Part shown: positions 46,778-54,497 of the stretch, piece after piece
Layout of the letters: the number at the start of each line of letters is the position of its first letter
Position numbering within the stretch: position 1 is the first letter of the stretch
Source of the DNA: Methylosinus sp. Sm6
Lineage (GTDB): Bacteria > Pseudomonadota > Alphaproteobacteria > Rhizobiales > Beijerinckiaceae
Assembly: GCF_019802345.1 (NCBI RefSeq)
Contig: NZ_JAINDZ010000003.1
Location: 1 to 64,000 of the forward strand
Reading direction: 5' to 3'
DNA length: 64,000 nt
Notes under the pieces: model-generated
The model's database searches: none
What the model was told of the DNA's origin: nothing
The model's input: only the letters and a program-made list of their open reading frames with translations
Made by a program: the position numbers and the translations under genes

Positions 46778-47203
46778 TCAGTAATTCGCCCAAAGGCCCG
46801 GCGAGGCGATCTCGACGAGATTGCCGTCGGGGTCGCGGAAATAGAGGCTCCGCCCGCCGCGCGGCCATTCCATCCGCGCCTCGATCGCGACTCCCGTCTC
46901 GCCGAGGCGCCGCTCCCAACGCTCCATATCTTCGGCCGGCGTAGCCAGAGCAAAATGCATCCTGCCGAAACCGTCGTGCGGCGGAATCTCGCCGCCGGGC
47001 AATCTCACCGTCTCGGTTGTCGCCCCGCGCAAGAACAGCAGCAGCACGCTGCGCGGACCGCAATCATAGGCGACGAGCCGCTCGTCCGAAAACATGGGCG
47101 AGAGGCCGAGCGTCGTCTCGTAGAACCGGGCCGCCCGCGCCAGATCGTCGACATAAATCGCCGTCTCGAGACAGCCGTCGATTCTCGGCGCGGGAGCGTT
47201 CAT
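46778..47203 (-). CDS. VOC (glyoxalase/bleomycin-resistance fold) protein
   Basis: A 141-residue VOC protein. LETAIYVDDLARAARFYETT, HFALATP and LYFRDPDGNLVEIASPG show the metal-binding His/Glu pattern. It lies between sufT and sufA on the same strand with gaps of 15 and 42 bases, so it is part of the operon transcript. A role in Fe-S assembly is not known; the placement may be incidental. Confidence 0.85.
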   Translation of the reverse strand: MNAPAPRIDGCLETAIYVDDLARAARFYETTLGLSPMFSDERLVAYDCGPRSVLLLFLRGATTETVRLPGGEIPPHDGFGRMHFALATPAEDMERWERRLGETGVAIEARMEWPRGGRSLYFRDPDGNLVEIASPGLWANY

Positions 47204-47638: not shown

Positions 47639-48889
47639 TTAGGAAAACAGCGCCTTGGCCTTCAACAGCGCTTCCGCCAAGCGGTCCACCTCGCCGCGCG
47701 TATTATACATGGCGAACGAAGCGCGGCAGGTGGAGGTGACGTTGAAACGCTGCAGCAGCGGCATGGCGCAATGGGTGCCGGCGCGCACGGCGACGCCGGA
47801 GCGGTCGATGATGGTCGCAATGTCGTGGGCGTGCGCCTCCGGCATGTCGAAAGCGACGATCGGGCCCTTGTCCTTGGCGTGGCCGAAGATGCGCAGCCCC
47901 GGCACGTCGGCGAGCCGCTCATGCGCATAGGCCGTGACATCGGCTTCATGCGCGCGGATCGCCGGACGGCCGATCTTCTGCATATAGTCGAGCGCCGCGC
48001 CGAGCCCCGCCGCCTGCACGATCGGCGGCGTGCCCGCCTCGAAGCGATGCGGCGGCGTGTTGTAGGTGACGGTGTCGCGCGTGACCATCTCGATCATCTC
48101 GCCGCCGCCGGCGAAGGGCGGCAGGCTCTCCAGCCATTTCTTCTTGCCATAGACCGCGCCGATGCCGGTCGGCCCATAGAGCTTGTGGCCGGTGACGACG
48201 TAGAAATCGACGTCCAGCGCGCGCACGTCGACGTCGAGATGCACGGCGCCCTGCGAGCCGTCGACCAGCACCGGCACGCCATGGGCGTGAGCGATGCGCA
48301 CGACATCGGCGACCGGCGTCGGCGCCGCCAGCACATTGGACATATGCGTCAGCGCGACGATCTTGGTCTTCGGCGTGATCAGCCTCTCGAAATCCTCGAG
48401 CGAGAACACGCCGTCATCGTCGGTCTCGATCCATTTCAGCACCGCGCCCTTGCGCTCGCGCAGAAAGTGCCAGGGCACGATGTTGGAGTGGTGCTCCATG
48501 ATCGAGAGGATGATCTCGTCGCCCTCGCCGATATGGGCGAGGCCATAGGACGAGGCGACGAGATTGATGGCTTCGGTGGCGCCGCGGGTGAAGATGATCT
48601 CTTCGCGCGACTCGGCGTTGAGAAAGCGGCGCAAGGTCTCGCGCGCGCCCTCGTAGGCGTCGGTCGCCGCATTGGCGAGATAATGCAGGCCGCGATGCAC
48701 ATTGGCGTATTCGTGCTCGTAGACCTGGGAGATGCGCTCGATCACCTGTTTCGGCTTCTGCGCCGAAGCGGCGTTGTCGAGATAGACGAGATCCTTGCCA
48801 TAGGGCTTTTCCGAGAGGATCGGAAAATCGCGACGGATCGCCTCGACGTCATAGGCCGCGGTCGCTTCCTTCAAGAGCGGCTGGTTCAC
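47639..48889 (-). CDS. sufS: SufS cysteine desulfurase
   Basis: A 416-residue group II desulfurase that takes sulfur from cysteine as an enzyme persulfide. The PLP lysine is in VTGHKLYGPTGIG, and the catalytic Cys is in RAGTHCAMPL. The start is a GTG at 48889 overlapping the sufD stop (GTGA); earlier readings are the wrong frame of sufD. Confidence 0.95.
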   Translation of the reverse strand: MNQPLLKEATAAYDVEAIRRDFPILSEKPYGKDLVYLDNAASAQKPKQVIERISQVYEHEYANVHRGLHYLANAATDAYEGARETLRRFLNAESREEIIFTRGATEAINLVASSYGLAHIGEGDEIILSIMEHHSNIVPWHFLRERKGAVLKWIETDDDGVFSLEDFERLITPKTKIVALTHMSNVLAAPTPVADVVRIAHAHGVPVLVDGSQGAVHLDVDVRALDVDFYVVTGHKLYGPTGIGAVYGKKKWLESLPPFAGGGEMIEMVTRDTVTYNTPPHRFEAGTPPIVQAAGLGAALDYMQKIGRPAIRAHEADVTAYAHERLADVPGLRIFGHAKDKGPIVAFDMPEAHAHDIATIIDRSGVAVRAGTHCAMPLLQRFNVTSTCRASFAMYNTRGEVDRLAEALLKAKALFS

Positions 48890-50190
48890 TTGCCGTCCTC
48901 CCGTCTGCCGAGCCAGGAGCGAATGCGCGCGAAATAGGATTCGCGTGTCGCCTCCTCGGAGACCGCGTCGACGATCTCGCCGGCGAAGCCTTCGATCAGC
49001 AGCGCCTCGGCCTCGCGCTTGGGCAGGCCGCGCGCCTCGAGATAGAACAGCTGGTCGGCGTCGAGGCGGCCGCAAGTGGCGCCATGGCCGCAAACGACGT
49101 CGTCGGCGAAGATCTCGAGCTCCGGCTTGTTGTTCATCGTGGCGTTCTCGCTGAGGAGAAGCGCCCGCGACTGCATCGAGCCATCGGTCTTCTGCGCGCC
49201 GGGACGCACCACGACCTTGCCTTGGAACACGCCGGTCGACTGGCCGTCGAGCACGCTGCGGAAGCGCTCGCGGCTCTGGCAATGCGGCGCCGCATGCTCG
49301 ACGACGAGCGTCGTGTCGGCGTGATCCTTGCCGCCGAGCAGGGCGACGCCATCGAGCGAGAGGCTCGCCTGCTCACCGGCGAGACGCGCGAAGATTTGCC
49401 GGCGCACGAGGCCGCCGCCTTCGACGAATCCGAGCGATTTGAACGAGGCCTTGGTCTGCGCCGTCACCATCAGGCTGAACAGGCGGATCGCCGCTTCCGA
49501 CTGCGGGCCGATGTCGGCGATATGCTCGACCTCGGCGCCCGCGCCGATCGAAAAGGCGAGCACATGGTTCTCCTGCACGCCGGCAGGCGCGAGCGCGACG
49601 GAGGTTTCGACGATCTTGGCCTTGGCGCCGTCGCCGACGACGACGAGCGAGCGCGTGAAGGCCGAGCGCGCGGCGTCGCCCGAGGATAGCAGCAGAATCT
49701 CGATCGTCTTCGCCACCTCGGTCGCCGGGGCGATGCGCAGCACCACGCCGTCCTGCATCAGCGCGGCGTTGAGCGCGACGACCGCGTCGGCGCCGGCGTT
49801 CTCGGGTAGGCCGAGCGCGGTCAGAACAGCGGAATCGTCCTTTGCCAGCGCATCGGCGAGCGAAGACAGCTCGACGCCGGCCGGCAGAGCGGCGACGTCT
49901 GACAGATCCGGACGAAACGCGCCATCGGCGACGACGAGGCGCACGCGCCCGTCCGCCGCAGCCGGAACGGCGACCGTTCCCGGCGCGCCGAGCGGCGCCA
50001 CGCTGCGCAGCGCCGCGCGCAGATCGGTGTAATGCCACGCCTCGACGCGCCGCGTCGGCAGGCCTTTGCGCGCGAAGAATTCCCAAGAGGCCTGGCGCAG
50101 CGCCGCGGCGCCCTTGCCCTTCATCGCCTCGAAGGCGCCAGCGAGCGCCGTCTCGGCTTCGCTCTTCTTGTCGATCGCCTGCACGGTCAT
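48886..50190 (-). CDS. sufD: SufD, Fe-S scaffold subunit
   Basis: A 434-residue beta-helix protein that pairs with SufB and SufC. The C-terminal core contains VCGHGATCGRLDADQLFYLEARGLP in overlapping segments, with the conserved His and Cys used in the SufB-SufD interface. It follows sufC by nine bases and overlaps sufS by four. Confidence 0.95.
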   Translation of the reverse strand: MTVQAIDKKSEAETALAGAFEAMKGKGAAALRQASWEFFARKGLPTRRVEAWHYTDLRAALRSVAPLGAPGTVAVPAAADGRVRLVVADGAFRPDLSDVAALPAGVELSSLADALAKDDSAVLTALGLPENAGADAVVALNAALMQDGVVLRIAPATEVAKTIEILLLSSGDAARSAFTRSLVVVGDGAKAKIVETSVALAPAGVQENHVLAFSIGAGAEVEHIADIGPQSEAAIRLFSLMVTAQTKASFKSLGFVEGGGLVRRQIFARLAGEQASLSLDGVALLGGKDHADTTLVVEHAAPHCQSRERFRSVLDGQSTGVFQGKVVVRPGAQKTDGSMQSRALLLSENATMNNKPELEIFADDVVCGHGATCGRLDADQLFYLEARGLPKREAEALLIEGFAGEIVDAVSEEATRESYFARIRSWLGRREDGK

Positions 50191-50199
50191 GGCTTCACC

Positions 50200-50949
50200 T
50201 CACGCCGCTTCGCCGACATAATCGCGATAGCCGCTCTTCTCGAGCTCCAGCGCGAGCTCCGGACCGCCTGTCTTCTGGATCTTGCCCTTGGCCATCACAT
50301 GCACGGTGTCCGGCTTGATGTAGTCGAGCAGGCGCTGATAGTGGGTGATCACGAGGAAGCCGCGGCTCGGCGAGCGCAGCGCGTTGACGCCCTCGGAGAC
50401 GATGCGCAGCGCGTCGATGTCGAGACCGGAGTCGGTCTCGTCGAGAATGCCGAACTTCGGCTCCAGCAGGCTCATCTGCAGAATGTCCATGCGCTTCTTC
50501 TCGCCGCCGGAGAAGCCGACGTTGAGCGGACGCTTCAGCATGTCCATATTGATGCCGAGCTTGCTCGACGCCTCGCGCACCATCTTCATGAAGTCCGGCG
50601 TCTGCAGCTCCTCCTCGCCGCGAGAGCGGCGCTGCGCGTTCACCGCGGCCTTGAGGAAGGTCATCGTCGCGACGCCCGGAATCTCGACCGGATATTGGAA
50701 GGCGAGAAACACGCCCTTGGCGGCGCGCTCATGCGGCTCGAGACCGAGAATATTCTCGCCGTCGAGCAGCACCTCGCCCTCGGTCACGTCATAACCTTCG
50801 CGTCCCGAGATCACGTAAGAGAGCGTCGATTTGCCGGTGCCGTTCGGACCCATGATGGCGGCGACCTCGCCGTCCTTCACCGTCAGGTTCAGCCCGTCGA
50901 GAATTTTGCGTTCTCCGATGGAGACGTGGAGATTCTTGATTTCGATCAT
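50200..50949 (-). CDS. sufC: SufC, ATPase of the Fe-S scaffold
   Basis: A 249-residue ABC-type ATPase. Walker [11 protein letters not shown], signature [14 protein letters not shown] and Walker [16 protein letters not shown] (an Asp-Glu-Thr variant typical of SufC). It drives conformational change in SufB-SufD. The gap to parE upstream is 53 bases. Confidence 0.96.
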
Positions 50950-51002
50950 TTGCTCTGGTTCCTCTCGACGACGTTCCGTCTGGCGTTACGCTGTGACCGC
51001 AA

Positions 51003-51290
51003 TTACCGTGCCGCGCCTTCGAGGCTCCGTCTCATGTGGATGTAGCGAACCAGTTCCACGTGATCGGCCTCGATCCGATACAGCAGCAAGTAAGACCCGC
51101 ACACGGTGCTTCGCACTCCGACCGCTATGTCATTCCTCTCGCGCCCTATCTTCGGATTCTCGCCGAGCAGTCTGGTTTTTCTCTCCAAACGATCGAGCAG
51201 GCGATCCGCGGCGCTTTCGTCGTCCCGGGCCACATAGGCCCAAATTTCGATCAAATCCTCTTCTGCGCGTGCTGATCGAACAATGCGCAC
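51003..51290 (-). CDS. parE: ParE/RelE-family toxin
   Basis: A 95-residue toxin of the type II RelE/ParE superfamily. RSARAEEDLIEIWAYVARDD, LGENPKIGRERND and the C-terminal YLLLYRIEADHVELVRYIH are ParE features; ParE toxins poison gyrase. Its GTG start follows the parD TGA directly (TGAGTG), so translation is coupled. It is placed inside the suf operon between sufB and sufC. Confidence 0.9.
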   Translation of the reverse strand: MRIVRSARAEEDLIEIWAYVARDDESAADRLLDRLERKTRLLGENPKIGRERNDIAVGVRSTVCGSYLLLYRIEADHVELVRYIHMRRSLEGAAR

Positions 51291-51560
51291 TCAGCTTCTC
51301 GTGAGAGACGTTCGGCGGCGCGCTTCCGCTTTGATTTCATCGATCGACCATGACCGACCCGCGCCGCTCTCGACGCCCTCTTGCCAGAGACGACGCAGCT
51401 CCTCGAGCCCCATCGCCTCCGCCAATCTCTGCGCTCGCCACTCGGCGACAGCATCGCGAAGGACATCTTCTTCAGATGCATATTCGCCTGTCGCGACGGC
51501 CGAGGCGACTTCCGCCTCGAGATCGCCCGGCAAAACGAGATGCATCTTTCGAGCTGTCAT
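51291..51560 (-). CDS. parD: ParD-like antitoxin
   Basis: An 89-residue antitoxin. The N-terminal [20 protein letters not shown] is a ribbon-helix-helix DNA-binding segment with [11 protein letters not shown] following, and the C-terminal helix binds the toxin. Its ATG overlaps the sufB stop as ATGA (51557-51560), so the antitoxin would be translated from the suf mRNA. Autorepression through a private promoter inside sufB is possible but not visible. Confidence 0.88.
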
Positions 51561-53026
51561 CCCACGCTGCCTTCGAGGCTCACCGCGATCAGCTTCTGTG
51601 CTTCGACTGCGAATTCCATGGGCAGCTTCTGCAGCACATCGCGCACGAAACCATTGACGATGAGCGCCGTCGCTTCTTCTTCCGAGAGGCCGCGCTGCAT
51701 GCAATAGAACAGCTGGTCTTCGGAAATCTTCGACGTCGTCGCCTCATGCTCGAAGACAGCCGAGGCGTTCTTCGATTCGAGATAGGGCACCGTATGCGCG
51801 CCGCATTTGTCGCCGATCAGCAGGCTGTCGCAGTTGGTGAAATTGCGGGCGCCTTCCGCCTTGCGATGCGCCGACACCTGTCCGCGATAGGTGTTCTGCG
51901 AATTGCCGGCGGAGATGCCCTTGGAGATGATGCGGCTCTTGGTGTTCTTGCCGAGATGGATCATCTTCGTGCCGCTGTCGACCTGCTGATAGCCGTTCGA
52001 CACTGCGATCGAATAGAACTCGCCCTGCGAATTGTCGCCGCGCAGAATGCAGGATGGATATTTCCACGTCACCGCGGAGCCCGTCTCCACCTGCGTCCAG
52101 GAGATATGCGAGTTCTTGCCGCGGCAATCGCCACGCTTCGTCACGAAATTATAGATGCCGCCCTTGCCCTCGCTGTCGCCGGGATACCAGTTCTGCACCG
52201 TCGAATATTTGATCTCGGCGTCGTCGAGAGCGACGAGCTCGACCACCGCGGCGTGCAGCTGGTTCTCGTCGCGCTTGGGGGCCGTGCAGCCTTCGAGATA
52301 AGAGACGTAAGAGCCGGCGTCGGCGATGATGAGCGTGCGCTCGAACTGTCCCGTATTCTTCTCATTGATGCGGAAATAGGTCGAGAGCTCCATCGGGCAG
52401 CGCACGCCCGGCGGGATGTAGACGAAGGACCCGTCCGAGAACACGGCCGAGTTCAGCGTCGCATAGAAATTATCGGTCACCGGAACGACCGAGCCGAGAT
52501 ATTTGCGAACGAGCTCGGGATGCTCGCGCACCGCTTCCGAGATCGGGCAGAAGATCACGCCCGCCTTGGACAACTCCTCCTTGAAGGTCGTCGCCACCGA
52601 GACCGAGTCGAACACCGCGTCGACGGCGATCTTGCGCTGTTCGACGCCGGCGAGGATCTCCTGCTCGCGCAGCGGAATGCCGAGCTTCTCATAGGTGCGC
52701 AGCAGCTCCGGATCGACGTCCTCGATCGAGGTCGGCCCGGGCGTCGATTTCGGCGCGGAGTAATAATAGAGGTCCTGATAGTCGATCGGCGGATAGTCGA
52801 CCCGAGCCCATTTGGGCTCCTCCATCGTCAGCCAGCGCCGATAGGCCTCGAGGCGCCACTCGGTCAGCCATTCGGGCTCGTTCTTCTTCGCCGAAATGAA
52901 GCGGACGATATCTTCGCTGAGGCCCTTGGGGGCCTTTTCCGATTCGATATCGGTCGTGAAGCCGTATTTATACGCGTCGACGTCGATTTCCTCGACGCGC
53001 GCCACCGTCTCCTGGCGAGCCGCCAT
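51557..53026 (-). CDS. sufB: SufB, Fe-S scaffold subunit
   Basis: A 489-residue scaffold protein on which Fe-S clusters are built. [40 protein letters not shown] and [20 protein letters not shown] are intact, including the conserved cysteine at the cluster site. It lies 69 bases after the nifS-like gene, with the order sufB-parD-parE-sufC downstream. Confidence 0.96.
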
Positions 53027-53095: not shown

Positions 53096-54247
53096 TCAGG
53101 CGGCCGTCCGCCGCGCCCTGATCCTCTTCGCGATCCGTGCAAAAGCGATACCAAACAAATCTACATGCTCTCGGGTCGTCGACCAACCGAGACTCGCCCG
53201 CAAAGCTTCCGTTTCCTCGAGCCCCATGGCGGCGAGCACATGCGAGCGCCGCACCTTGCCCGAGGAACAGGCGGAGCCCGTGGAGAGGGCGATCCCTTCC
53301 ATGTCGAGCGCCATCAGCAGCGTATGCGCTTTTCCGCCCGGCGTCTGAAAGGCCGACGTGTTGGGCAGACGCGGAGCTCCGGCGCTCAAAAACACCGCTT
53401 CCGGCCAGCTTTCCTTTACTTTTTCCTCGAGCAGGCCGCGCAGCCCGGAGAGCCGCTCGGCTTCCTCGGCGAGCGTTTCTTTCGCGACTGCGAAAGCCGC
53501 GGCGAAGCCGAGGATGGCGGCGAGGTTTTCGGTTCCCGCGCGCCGGCCGCTCTCCTGCCCGCCGCCGCGCAGAAGCGCCTCCCTGATATGGAGAGCGTCG
53601 TCGGCGAGCGCCAGTGCGCCGGCGCCGGCGGGTCCCCCGAGCTTGTGTGAGGAAAAGAACAATGCATCGGCACCGGTCGAGGCGAATGTCGTCTCGATGC
53701 GTCCGACCGCCTGCGTCGCATCGCAGATCAGGAGCCCGCCCGCCGCATGGATCAGATCGGCCGCGGCGCGCGTCGGCTGCACCGCGCCGGTCTCGTTGTT
53801 GGCGGCCTGTAGGGCGACGAGAATGCGGCGTTCTTTGTTGCGCTGCAGCAAGCCGGACAGGGCGTCGAGCGCGACGATCCCGTCGGCGGTCAGCGCAACG
53901 CTTTCCACATTCCCCGGGGGGAAGCGGCGGCCTTGGAGGACGGCGGCATGCTCGCCGGCGCCGGCCAGCAGCAGATCGAAGGTGGCTTCGTCGTGGCCGC
54001 GTTGTAAGAAAGGCGTCAAAATCAGATTGGCGGCCTCGGTCGCGCCCGAGGTGAAGACGAGATTTTTAGTGGCTGTCCCGACGCCGGCGGCAATCTCTGC
54101 TCGCGCGCCTTCCACGGCGGCTCGGGCGGCGCGGCCCTCGGCATGGACGGAAGACGGGTTGCCGACCATGTCCAGCGCCGCGAGCATGGCCGCGCGGGCC
54201 TGGGGCCGCAGCGGCGTCGTGGCGTTGTGATCGAGATAGGCGCGCAT
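53096..54247 (-). CDS. NifS/IscS-like cysteine desulfurase
   Basis: A 383-residue group I desulfurase. MRAYLDHNATTPLR at the N-terminus, PLP lysine in SSHKLGGPAG, and the catalytic Cys in STGSACSSGKV. As the first gene of the suf operon it gives the operon two desulfurases (with SufS), an arrangement common in Rhizobiales. No iscR-like regulator precedes it here. The ATG at 54247 was chosen because longer readings extend into the promoter region. Confidence 0.93.
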   Translation of the reverse strand: MRAYLDHNATTPLRPQARAAMLAALDMVGNPSSVHAEGRAARAAVEGARAEIAAGVGTATKNLVFTSGATEAANLILTPFLQRGHDEATFDLLLAGAGEHAAVLQGRRFPPGNVESVALTADGIVALDALSGLLQRNKERRILVALQAANNETGAVQPTRAAADLIHAAGGLLICDATQAVGRIETTFASTGADALFFSSHKLGGPAGAGALALADDALHIREALLRGGGQESGRRAGTENLAAILGFAAAFAVAKETLAEEAERLSGLRGLLEEKVKESWPEAVFLSAGAPRLPNTSAFQTPGGKAHTLLMALDMEGIALSTGSACSSGKVRRSHVLAAMGLEETEALRASLGWSTTREHVDLFGIAFARIAKRIRARRTAA

Positions 54248-54497
54248 CGAACCCGGCGGGCTCCCGTTCGGCGCCGGGCCGATGTCATGGCGCGACGGGA
54301 GCTTCAAAACTCTTGCCTATCGCCCCGGCGTACATGCTAGAAGGCCCGCTCGGCCGGACAGGCTGCGGGAGCCCGGGCGCGTCGGAGCGTGGCGCCCCGC
54401 CGGGACTGGCCCGTCCGGATCATAACGCATTTTCGGCGTCGGCGGAAACCGTCCCGACCGAAAATGACGTTCTCGCGTCGGCACGACGAGGAGTTCC

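What the first reader, a model, noticed from the sequence alone, without database searches (positions are those of the whole stretch)
51003..51560. ParDE toxin-antitoxin pair embedded and translationally coupled inside the suf operon
The order is sufB-parD-parE-sufC, all leftward. parD overlaps the sufB stop (ATGA) and parE abuts parD (TGAGTG), so the toxin-antitoxin pair would share the Fe-S assembly mRNA. TA modules usually have their own autoregulated promoter. If Fe-S operon transcription falls, antitoxin supply falls with it, which could link Fe-S demand to growth arrest or make deletion of the operon toxic. The functional link is inference.
Basis: partly seen in the sequence, partly recalled or inferred. 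Interest (0 to 1): 0.75.

Follow-up and report, generated by a model that had tools for sequence, protein, structure and literature searches.

The report
ParDE pair in sufB–sufC insertion slot
A small toxin–antitoxin gene pair really does sit inside the operon that builds iron–sulfur clusters in this methane-oxidising bacterium, but it is one of many short gene cargos that come and go at that same spot in related bacteria, so it looks like a passenger in a popular landing site rather than a dedicated iron–sulfur alarm.

Summary
In detail: sufB, parD, parE and sufC run leftward, parD starts on the sufB stop (ATGA), parE at TGAGTG, both frames intact. The 9 other genus genomes examined lack the pair at this junction. 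Across 158 family genomes the sufB–sufC junction is a high-turnover slot: at least 250 nt in 43, while sufC–sufD never exceeds 37 nt (0 of 146). Outside the family: 37 of 106 against 0 of 99. The 43 hold ParDE (10, one broken), an orphan ParD, MNT–HEPN pairs (4), cupins (5) and others. Unrelated cargo shares the 'start codon on the sufB stop' docking, so the overlap is a property of the slot. In two Methylocystis the toxin is broken or gone while ParD stays open. The own ParE and eight Methylocystis slot ParEs form one clade. Best reading: a mobile type II pair lodged in a permissive junction of a housekeeping operon, probably co-expressed with it; a new instance of the relA–mazEF–mazG kind. 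The order-wide slot is the more interesting part.

The parts
51557..53026 (-). sufB; its last codon and stop (GGATGA) carry the parD start
51291..51560 (-). parD antitoxin, 89 aa, ATG overlaps the sufB stop
   Evidence: PF03693 21.9 bits, cut-off 21; profile of slot ParDs matches solved antitoxins 6x0a_a and 5ceg_A
51003..51290 (-). parE toxin, 95 aa, GTG start directly after the parD stop; frame intact
   Evidence: PF05016 60.6 bits; profile of slot ParEs matches solved toxins 6x0a_A and 5ceg_B
50950..51002 (-). 53-nt parE-sufC spacer with a purine-rich stretch before the sufC ATG (likely ribosome-binding site, by eye)
50200..50949 (-). sufC
48886..50190 (-). sufD
47639..48832 (-). sufS-type cysteine desulfurase (part of a longer open frame)
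53096..54307 (-). first cysteine desulfurase (class-V aminotransferase, IscS/NifS-like but under the NCBI cut-offs), upstream of sufB

Best explanation
A genuine type II ParD-ParE pair has lodged in the sufB-sufC junction, a permissive, high-turnover insertion slot inside an otherwise tight Fe-S assembly operon of this bacterial order. The pair has no visible promoter of its own, starts on the sufB stop codon, and is therefore most likely translated by re-initiation from the suf mRNA, ParD first and then ParE. The likely benefit is to the pair itself: it sits inside the only SUF locus detected in the genome, which large deletions or silencing cannot easily remove, and toxin is made together with antitoxin. 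SUF function does not need it. Shown here: anatomy, intact frames, purifying selection in relatives, slot variability, toxin decay with retained antitoxin in two relatives. Inferred: one transcript, re-initiation, toxicity, self-serving benefit, essentiality of the operon.
For: Slot: sufB-sufC spacer >=250 nt in 43 of 158 family genomes; among the 146 with both junctions measured, 35 against 0 at sufC-sufD (max 37). Outside the family 37 of 106 against 0 of 99. 35 state changes on a FastTree sufB tree of 158. Cargo among the 43: ParD+ParE 10, ParD alone 1, MNT-HEPN 4, cupin 5, others. Docking: cargo start on the sufB stop in 27 of 43 by script, plus two (L248, L261) whose parD starts there although the script chose a longer frame, so 29; last sufB codon GGG/GGA in 32 of 43 against 24 of 115, Fisher p 9e-10; 25 tree-independent pairs: on average 14.0 with, 1.8 against, 9.2 tied, median p 0.004. 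Own ParE plus eight Methylocystis slot ParEs are one starred clade, 99/97. Of 73 ParE loci from the species collection, the five best by E-value and L210 flank sufB. Toxin decay: stop early in parE of G162; G166 keeps parD without parE. dN/dS parD 0.10, parE 0.31, sufB 0.02 in four Methylocystis. One SufB and one SufD in the own genome.
Against: No RNA data: an internal promoter in sufB cannot be excluded. Toxicity and target untested. Both genes are under purifying selection, so a host benefit is not excluded. The 7 nearest siblings carry a strong hairpin in the junction, so the junction may have a regulatory role that the pair replaced. PF01592 (NifU/IscU-type) matches exist elsewhere in the genome, one strong and one weak, so suf may not be the only Fe-S route. 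Many junctions hold short non-coding spacers, and 16 of the 43 long ones and 25 of the 37 outside were not assigned to a cargo class by the script.
Confidence: 0.75

Rival explanations
1. Functional coupling: ParDE is an Fe-S sensor; when suf transcription falls, labile ParD runs out and ParE arrests growth.
For: Embedded, overlapping frames; the parE stop overlaps the sufC start in five Methylocystis carriers and in G119, so there the chain can be coupled throughout; both genes under purifying selection.
Against: Absent at this junction from 9 of 10 genus genomes; presence changes as often as a shuffled label on the sufB and sufC trees; unrelated cargo docks in the same way; toxin broken or lost in two relatives. 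In Caulobacter this operon rises in iron starvation (PMC11475020, abstract), which would raise antitoxin supply, not cut it; this species was not examined.
Confidence: 0.08
2. Autonomous module: ParDE has its own ParD-regulated promoter inside the sufB 3' end and is merely parked in the operon, perhaps modulating sufCDS through ParD binding.
For: Autoregulated promoters are the rule for type II pairs (review PMC7167474, passages). In Caulobacter an IscR ChIP peak lies at the end of sufB, without known role (PMC11475020, passages), so binding sites inside sufB are conceivable.
Against: No sigma-70-like site in 50900-52000 (alphaproteobacterial promoters can differ). In one Methylocystis clade, carriers are no more alike in the last 163 nt of sufB than carriers and non-carriers are (0.957 against 0.958).
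Confidence: 0.12
3. Ancient resident: the pair was in the slot of the common ancestor of Methylocystis and this genus and has been lost many times.
For: One ParE clade made of slot copies only.
Against: Between own and three Methylocystis carriers parE is near-saturated at synonymous sites (0.73-0.75 different) while sufB and sufC are not (0.42-0.47) (codon bias of suf genes is a confounder). Species beside carriers have palindromic spacers at the same place, shared with deeper branches, which deletion of parDE would not recreate. In the own genome and five Methylocystis carriers parDE have lower GC3 (0.59-0.67) than sufB/sufC (0.80-0.86).
Confidence: 0.2

Closest known systems
relA-mazEF-mazG and dinB-yafNO-yafP in E. 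coli; parDE in relA-mazG of Salmonella; ccd or REP in folA-apaH (review PMC7167474, passages)
   Same: Type II pair between two genes of a housekeeping operon; absent in many strains, where the operon is undisturbed; the same site can hold another pair or REP sequences
   Different: Here the host operon is suf, the range of cargo seen is wider, and the cargo start often overlaps the upstream stop codon
[quoted passage not shown]
   Same: Extra small gene at exactly this junction of an alphaproteobacterial suf operon; tested junctions reported as co-transcribed
Muricauda olearia momL between sufB and sufC (PMC5484670, passages)
   Same: Unrelated gene inserted at the same junction and reported as co-transcribed with suf
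   Different: Different phylum (recalled), quorum-quenching lactonase
ParD-ParE of solved entries 6x0a and 5ceg
   Same: Best-scoring solved relatives of both the ParE and the ParD profile
   Different: Their genomic setting was not examined; that they come from Mesorhizobium is recalled
HEPN-MNT (MntA-HepT) toxin-antitoxin pairs
   Same: Occupy the same junction in 4 family genomes and 1 outside; NTP_transf_2 and HEPN domains
   Different: Unrelated proteins; the system name is recalled

Membership tests
ParDE type II toxin-antitoxin | ParE/RelE-family toxin domain | tested here: met
   PF05016 60.6 bits, cut-off 23; solved ParE relatives
ParDE type II toxin-antitoxin | ParD ribbon-helix-helix antitoxin | tested here: met
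   PF03693 21.9 bits, cut-off 21, marginal; profile matches solved ParD chains. Against: NCBI TIGR02606 cut-off not reached, 29 of 46.2
ParDE type II toxin-antitoxin | Antitoxin gene directly upstream of the toxin gene, frames abutting | tested here: met
   TGAGTG junction
ParDE type II toxin-antitoxin | Own autoregulated promoter | tested here: inconclusive
   No sigma-70-like site; consensus scan only
ParDE type II toxin-antitoxin | Toxicity neutralised by the cognate antitoxin | not testable with these tools
   Indirect only: parE broken or gone with parD open in G162 and G166
Toxin-antitoxin pair lodged in a housekeeping operon (relA-mazEF-mazG kind) | Operon genes adjacent without the pair in close relatives | tested here: met
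   9 of 9 other genus genomes examined
Toxin-antitoxin pair lodged in a housekeeping operon (relA-mazEF-mazG kind) | Same junction holds alternative cargo or REP-like sequences | tested here: met
Toxin-antitoxin pair lodged in a housekeeping operon (relA-mazEF-mazG kind) | Co-transcription with the host operon | not testable with these tools
   No RNA data

The most novel reading that the evidence does not exclude
The sufB-sufC junction of this order is a guided docking slot: short cargos, among them two kinds of toxin-antitoxin pair, are placed with their start codon on the sufB stop and swapped as alleles between species by recombination in the conserved flanking suf genes, so that addiction modules become tied to an essential operon they do not serve.
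Probability: 0.35. Interest if true: 0.65.

Novelty: new member of a known kind. Interest (0 to 1): 0.45.

Why it matters
Type II pairs inside housekeeping operons are often read as functional partners of the host genes. This locus offers a natural comparison: the same junction short, filled with ParDE, filled with an unrelated toxin–antitoxin pair, or filled with unrelated genes, in closely related species. That lets the question 'function or passenger?' be tested directly. It also points to one junction in an Fe-S assembly operon that accepts insertions where the next junction does not, which asks what makes an operon junction permissive.

Tried and rejected
By identity alone some non-slot loci rank above the fifth of these, several of them over short stretches. 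The query held the G066 and G119 copies, which return as L177 and L210.

Recombination in the flanks: in a 10-member Methylocystis clade (5 ParDE, 5 palindrome spacers) mean identity among carriers differs from that between carriers and non-carriers by at most 0.014 in each of nine sufB segments and the first three sufC segments; in the three sufC segments carriers are slightly more alike (0.924, 0.928, 0.968 against 0.912, 0.926, 0.954) (stopped by an error after 450 nt of sufC). No clear recent tract. In the window's own genus the sufB tree puts the genome outside its seven nearest siblings, the sufC tree pairs it with one of them, G146, both with starred support: a hint of recombination near the junction. 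In four Methylocystis, parE dS (0.095) lies below sufB dS (0.18) but parD dS (0.43) above it: mosaic, few sites.

Slot ParDE outside the family: a slot ParE profile in 397 order genomes at E <= 1e-20 gave 23 matches in 22 genomes; of the 23 loci only the window's own carries sufB in the roughly 1.5 kb held on each side. Weaker relatives and genomes not drawn would be missed.

Papers: nine full-text searches listed no title or abstract about a toxin–antitoxin pair in a suf operon. Only listings were seen, except passages of PMC5484670, PMC11475020 and PMC7167474; the three papers that hold all four terms were not opened. Subscription papers are mostly not held.

Rows not measured: of 144 family genomes with SufB 130 were taken; with 4 further genus genomes and 26 further Methylocystis (30 of its 37 with SufB in all) this makes 160, of which 2 gave no sufC before their contig ended (L057, L089). 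Outside the family 108 of 139 with SufB were taken and 106 measured; L336 ends at its contig end, L312 has no sufC in the 1500 nt held. Methylocystis is over-represented in the 158, so 43 of 158 is not a random sample; without those 26 the count was 34 of 132. From the ParE tree 11 of 108 rows were left out as duplicates of others.

Full report
What is there. On the minus strand the window reads cysteine desulfurase – sufB – parD – parE – sufC – sufD – sufS – SUF-associated protein – one further ORF – sufA-like gene. parD (51560..51291) starts with the ATG contained in GGATGA, the last codon and stop of sufB; parE (51290..51003) starts GTG directly after the parD TGA; sufC starts 53 nt after the parE stop. 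ParE is a clear PF05016 member (60.6 bits, cut-off 23); ParD passes PF03693 narrowly (21.9, cut-off 21) and does not reach NCBI's TIGR02606 (29 of 46.2). Neither matches PADLOC models at E <= 0.001. Profiles built from slot copies match solved ParE chains (7 distinct sequences, best 6x0a and 5ceg) and solved ParD chains (4, best 6x0a and 5ceg). The genome has a pmoA-type gene (PF02461); a methanotroph, probably Methylosinus, is inferred, and that genus name comes from no call. It has nine PF05016 matches, one of them at suf, and one SufB and one SufD.

Names. The genus called Methylocystis here (group g18) is identified because contigs of G161, G174 and G165 have the same lengths as the named Methylocystis records L176, L175 and L178.

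Near relatives. Ten genomes of the genus were compared. Only the window's genome has parDE at this junction. Seven siblings have a 140–141 nt spacer with a strong hairpin (-23 to -30 kcal/mol over the first 60 nt in the four folded); the other two have a 499-nt slot with a secreted-protein-like ORF (G151) and a 177-nt spacer with a palindrome (G105). On a sufB tree the window's genome branches just outside the seven; on the sufC tree it pairs with one of them, G146.

The junction is a slot. In 158 family genomes the sufB–sufC spacer has a median of 137.5 nt and is at least 250 nt in 43; sufC–sufD is at most 37 nt in all 146 measured. In 106 genomes of other families of the order, 37 are at least 250 nt; sufC–sufD is at most 113 nt in 99. 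The label 'at least 250 nt' needs 35 changes on a sufB tree of 158. By homology the 43 family slots hold ParD+ParE (10, one of them with parE broken), ParD alone (1), MNT+HEPN (4), cupin (5), a secreted CTC-motif protein (4), a small cysteine-rich protein (4, two of them beside a toxin–antitoxin pair), a small coiled protein (2, one beside a CTC protein), and 16 unassigned; the 37 outside slots hold cupin 8, MNT+HEPN 1, CTC protein 1, small coiled protein 2, and 25 unassigned (domains of twenty chosen cargo proteins, ten of which had no Pfam match). Among those the script left unassigned, a GIY-YIG nuclease, a DUF4267 protein and another cupin-like protein were seen. Many short Methylocystis spacers are palindrome pairs that look like REP elements (the name is from recall and the review).

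Docking. In 27 of 43 long slots the script found a cargo start overlapping the sufB stop (26 of them one base before it), and in two more, L248 and L261, parD starts there although the script picked a longer overlapping frame. The last sufB codon is GGG or GGA in 32 of 43 long against 24 of 115 short slots. Tree-independent pairs agree: 25 pairs, on average 14.0 with, 1.8 against, 9.2 tied, median p 0.004, range 0.00015–0.049. In five Methylocystis carriers and G119 the parE stop also overlaps the sufC start (TGATG); in the window it does not.

The ParDE lineage. In a draw of 149 family genomes the two best relatives of the window's ParE, G066 (58%) and G119 (49%), both sit next to sufB. The five best by E-value (70, 67, 66, 58 and 51% identity) and L210 (49%) have sufB next to the pair; no other of the 73 has sufB in the DNA held. 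L177 and L210 are the contigs of G066 and G119, which were in the query. In a tree of 97 ParE rows the window's ParE and eight Methylocystis slot ParEs form one starred clade with no non-slot member; L177 and L210 are unresolved (92 columns, bootstrap not settled). In four Methylocystis, dN/dS is 0.10 for parD, 0.31 for parE and 0.02 for sufB. G162 has a stop codon early in parE with parD open, and G166 has parD with no parE in its 293-nt slot. Antitoxin outliving toxin is what one expects if ParE is costly; it is not proof.

History. ParDE presence needs 10 changes on the sufB tree of 45 rows, no fewer than shuffled labels (9.3), and 9 on the sufC tree. Between the window and three Methylocystis carriers, parE synonymous sites are near-saturated (0.73–0.75 different) while those of sufB and sufC are 0.42–0.47, and parDE have lower GC3 than their neighbours. 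This leans towards repeated acquisition from a shared pool over strict vertical descent, but codon bias in suf genes could produce the same contrast, and flank identity showed no clear recent swap.

Mechanism. Most likely the pair is translated from the suf mRNA by re-initiation. No sigma-70-like promoter was found in 50900–52000. Whether this species behaves likewise is unknown. An addiction effect against loss of the operon is possible but would be redundant if the operon is essential; the benefit is more plausibly the pair's own.

Known context. The review PMC7167474 (passages) describes mazEF and yafNO inside larger operons without functional link, undisturbed operons where they are absent, and other pairs or REP sequences at such sites. 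Single cases of an extra gene between sufB and sufC are in print for Caulobacter and Muricauda (its authors call that arrangement unreported elsewhere). The nine searches named under Tried and rejected listed no toxin–antitoxin pair in a suf operon and no survey of this junction; their hits were seen as listings except the three papers named. Verdict: a true observation, a known kind of insertion, in an unusually open slot.

Noticed in passing
L041-L047 (sufB-sufC spacer, first 60 nt after the sufB stop): Seven sibling genomes share a strong inverted repeat (about GCAAAGAGGCGCTC ... GAGCGCCTCTTTGC) between sufB and sufC that the window's genome lacks; possible processing or attenuation element.
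   Followed up: partly
L050, L247, L164, L171, L326 (sufB-sufC slot): MNT-HEPN toxin-antitoxin pairs occupy the same suf junction in five genomes, in two of them (L050, L326) with MNT as the first cargo at or just after the sufB stop.
   Followed up: partly
L264-L266, L268-L272, L250, L252, L254 and L249, L251, L253 (sufB-sufC spacer): Two different REP-like palindrome families (GGCCGGGCTTGTCCCGGCC... and CATTGCGAGGAGCG...) fill the junction in Methylocystis.
   Followed up: partly
L065, L165, L247, L256 (slot): A small cysteine-rich protein (CGCFxC ... CPxCGxDSVIGD-like) recurs in the slot, twice directly before a toxin-antitoxin pair; the two copies scanned had no Pfam match.
   Followed up: no
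L257 (G166) slot: Orphan ParD with an open frame and no ParE; possible retained or anti-addiction antitoxin.
   Followed up: partly
Methylocystis genomes: 14 of 39 genomes carry a SufB copy 85-86% like the query besides one nearer to it, at another locus; its surroundings were not read.
   Followed up: no
window 46778..47203 (-): A 141-aa ORF lies between the SUF-associated gene and the sufA-like gene at the end of the suf operon; it was not searched.
   Followed up: no
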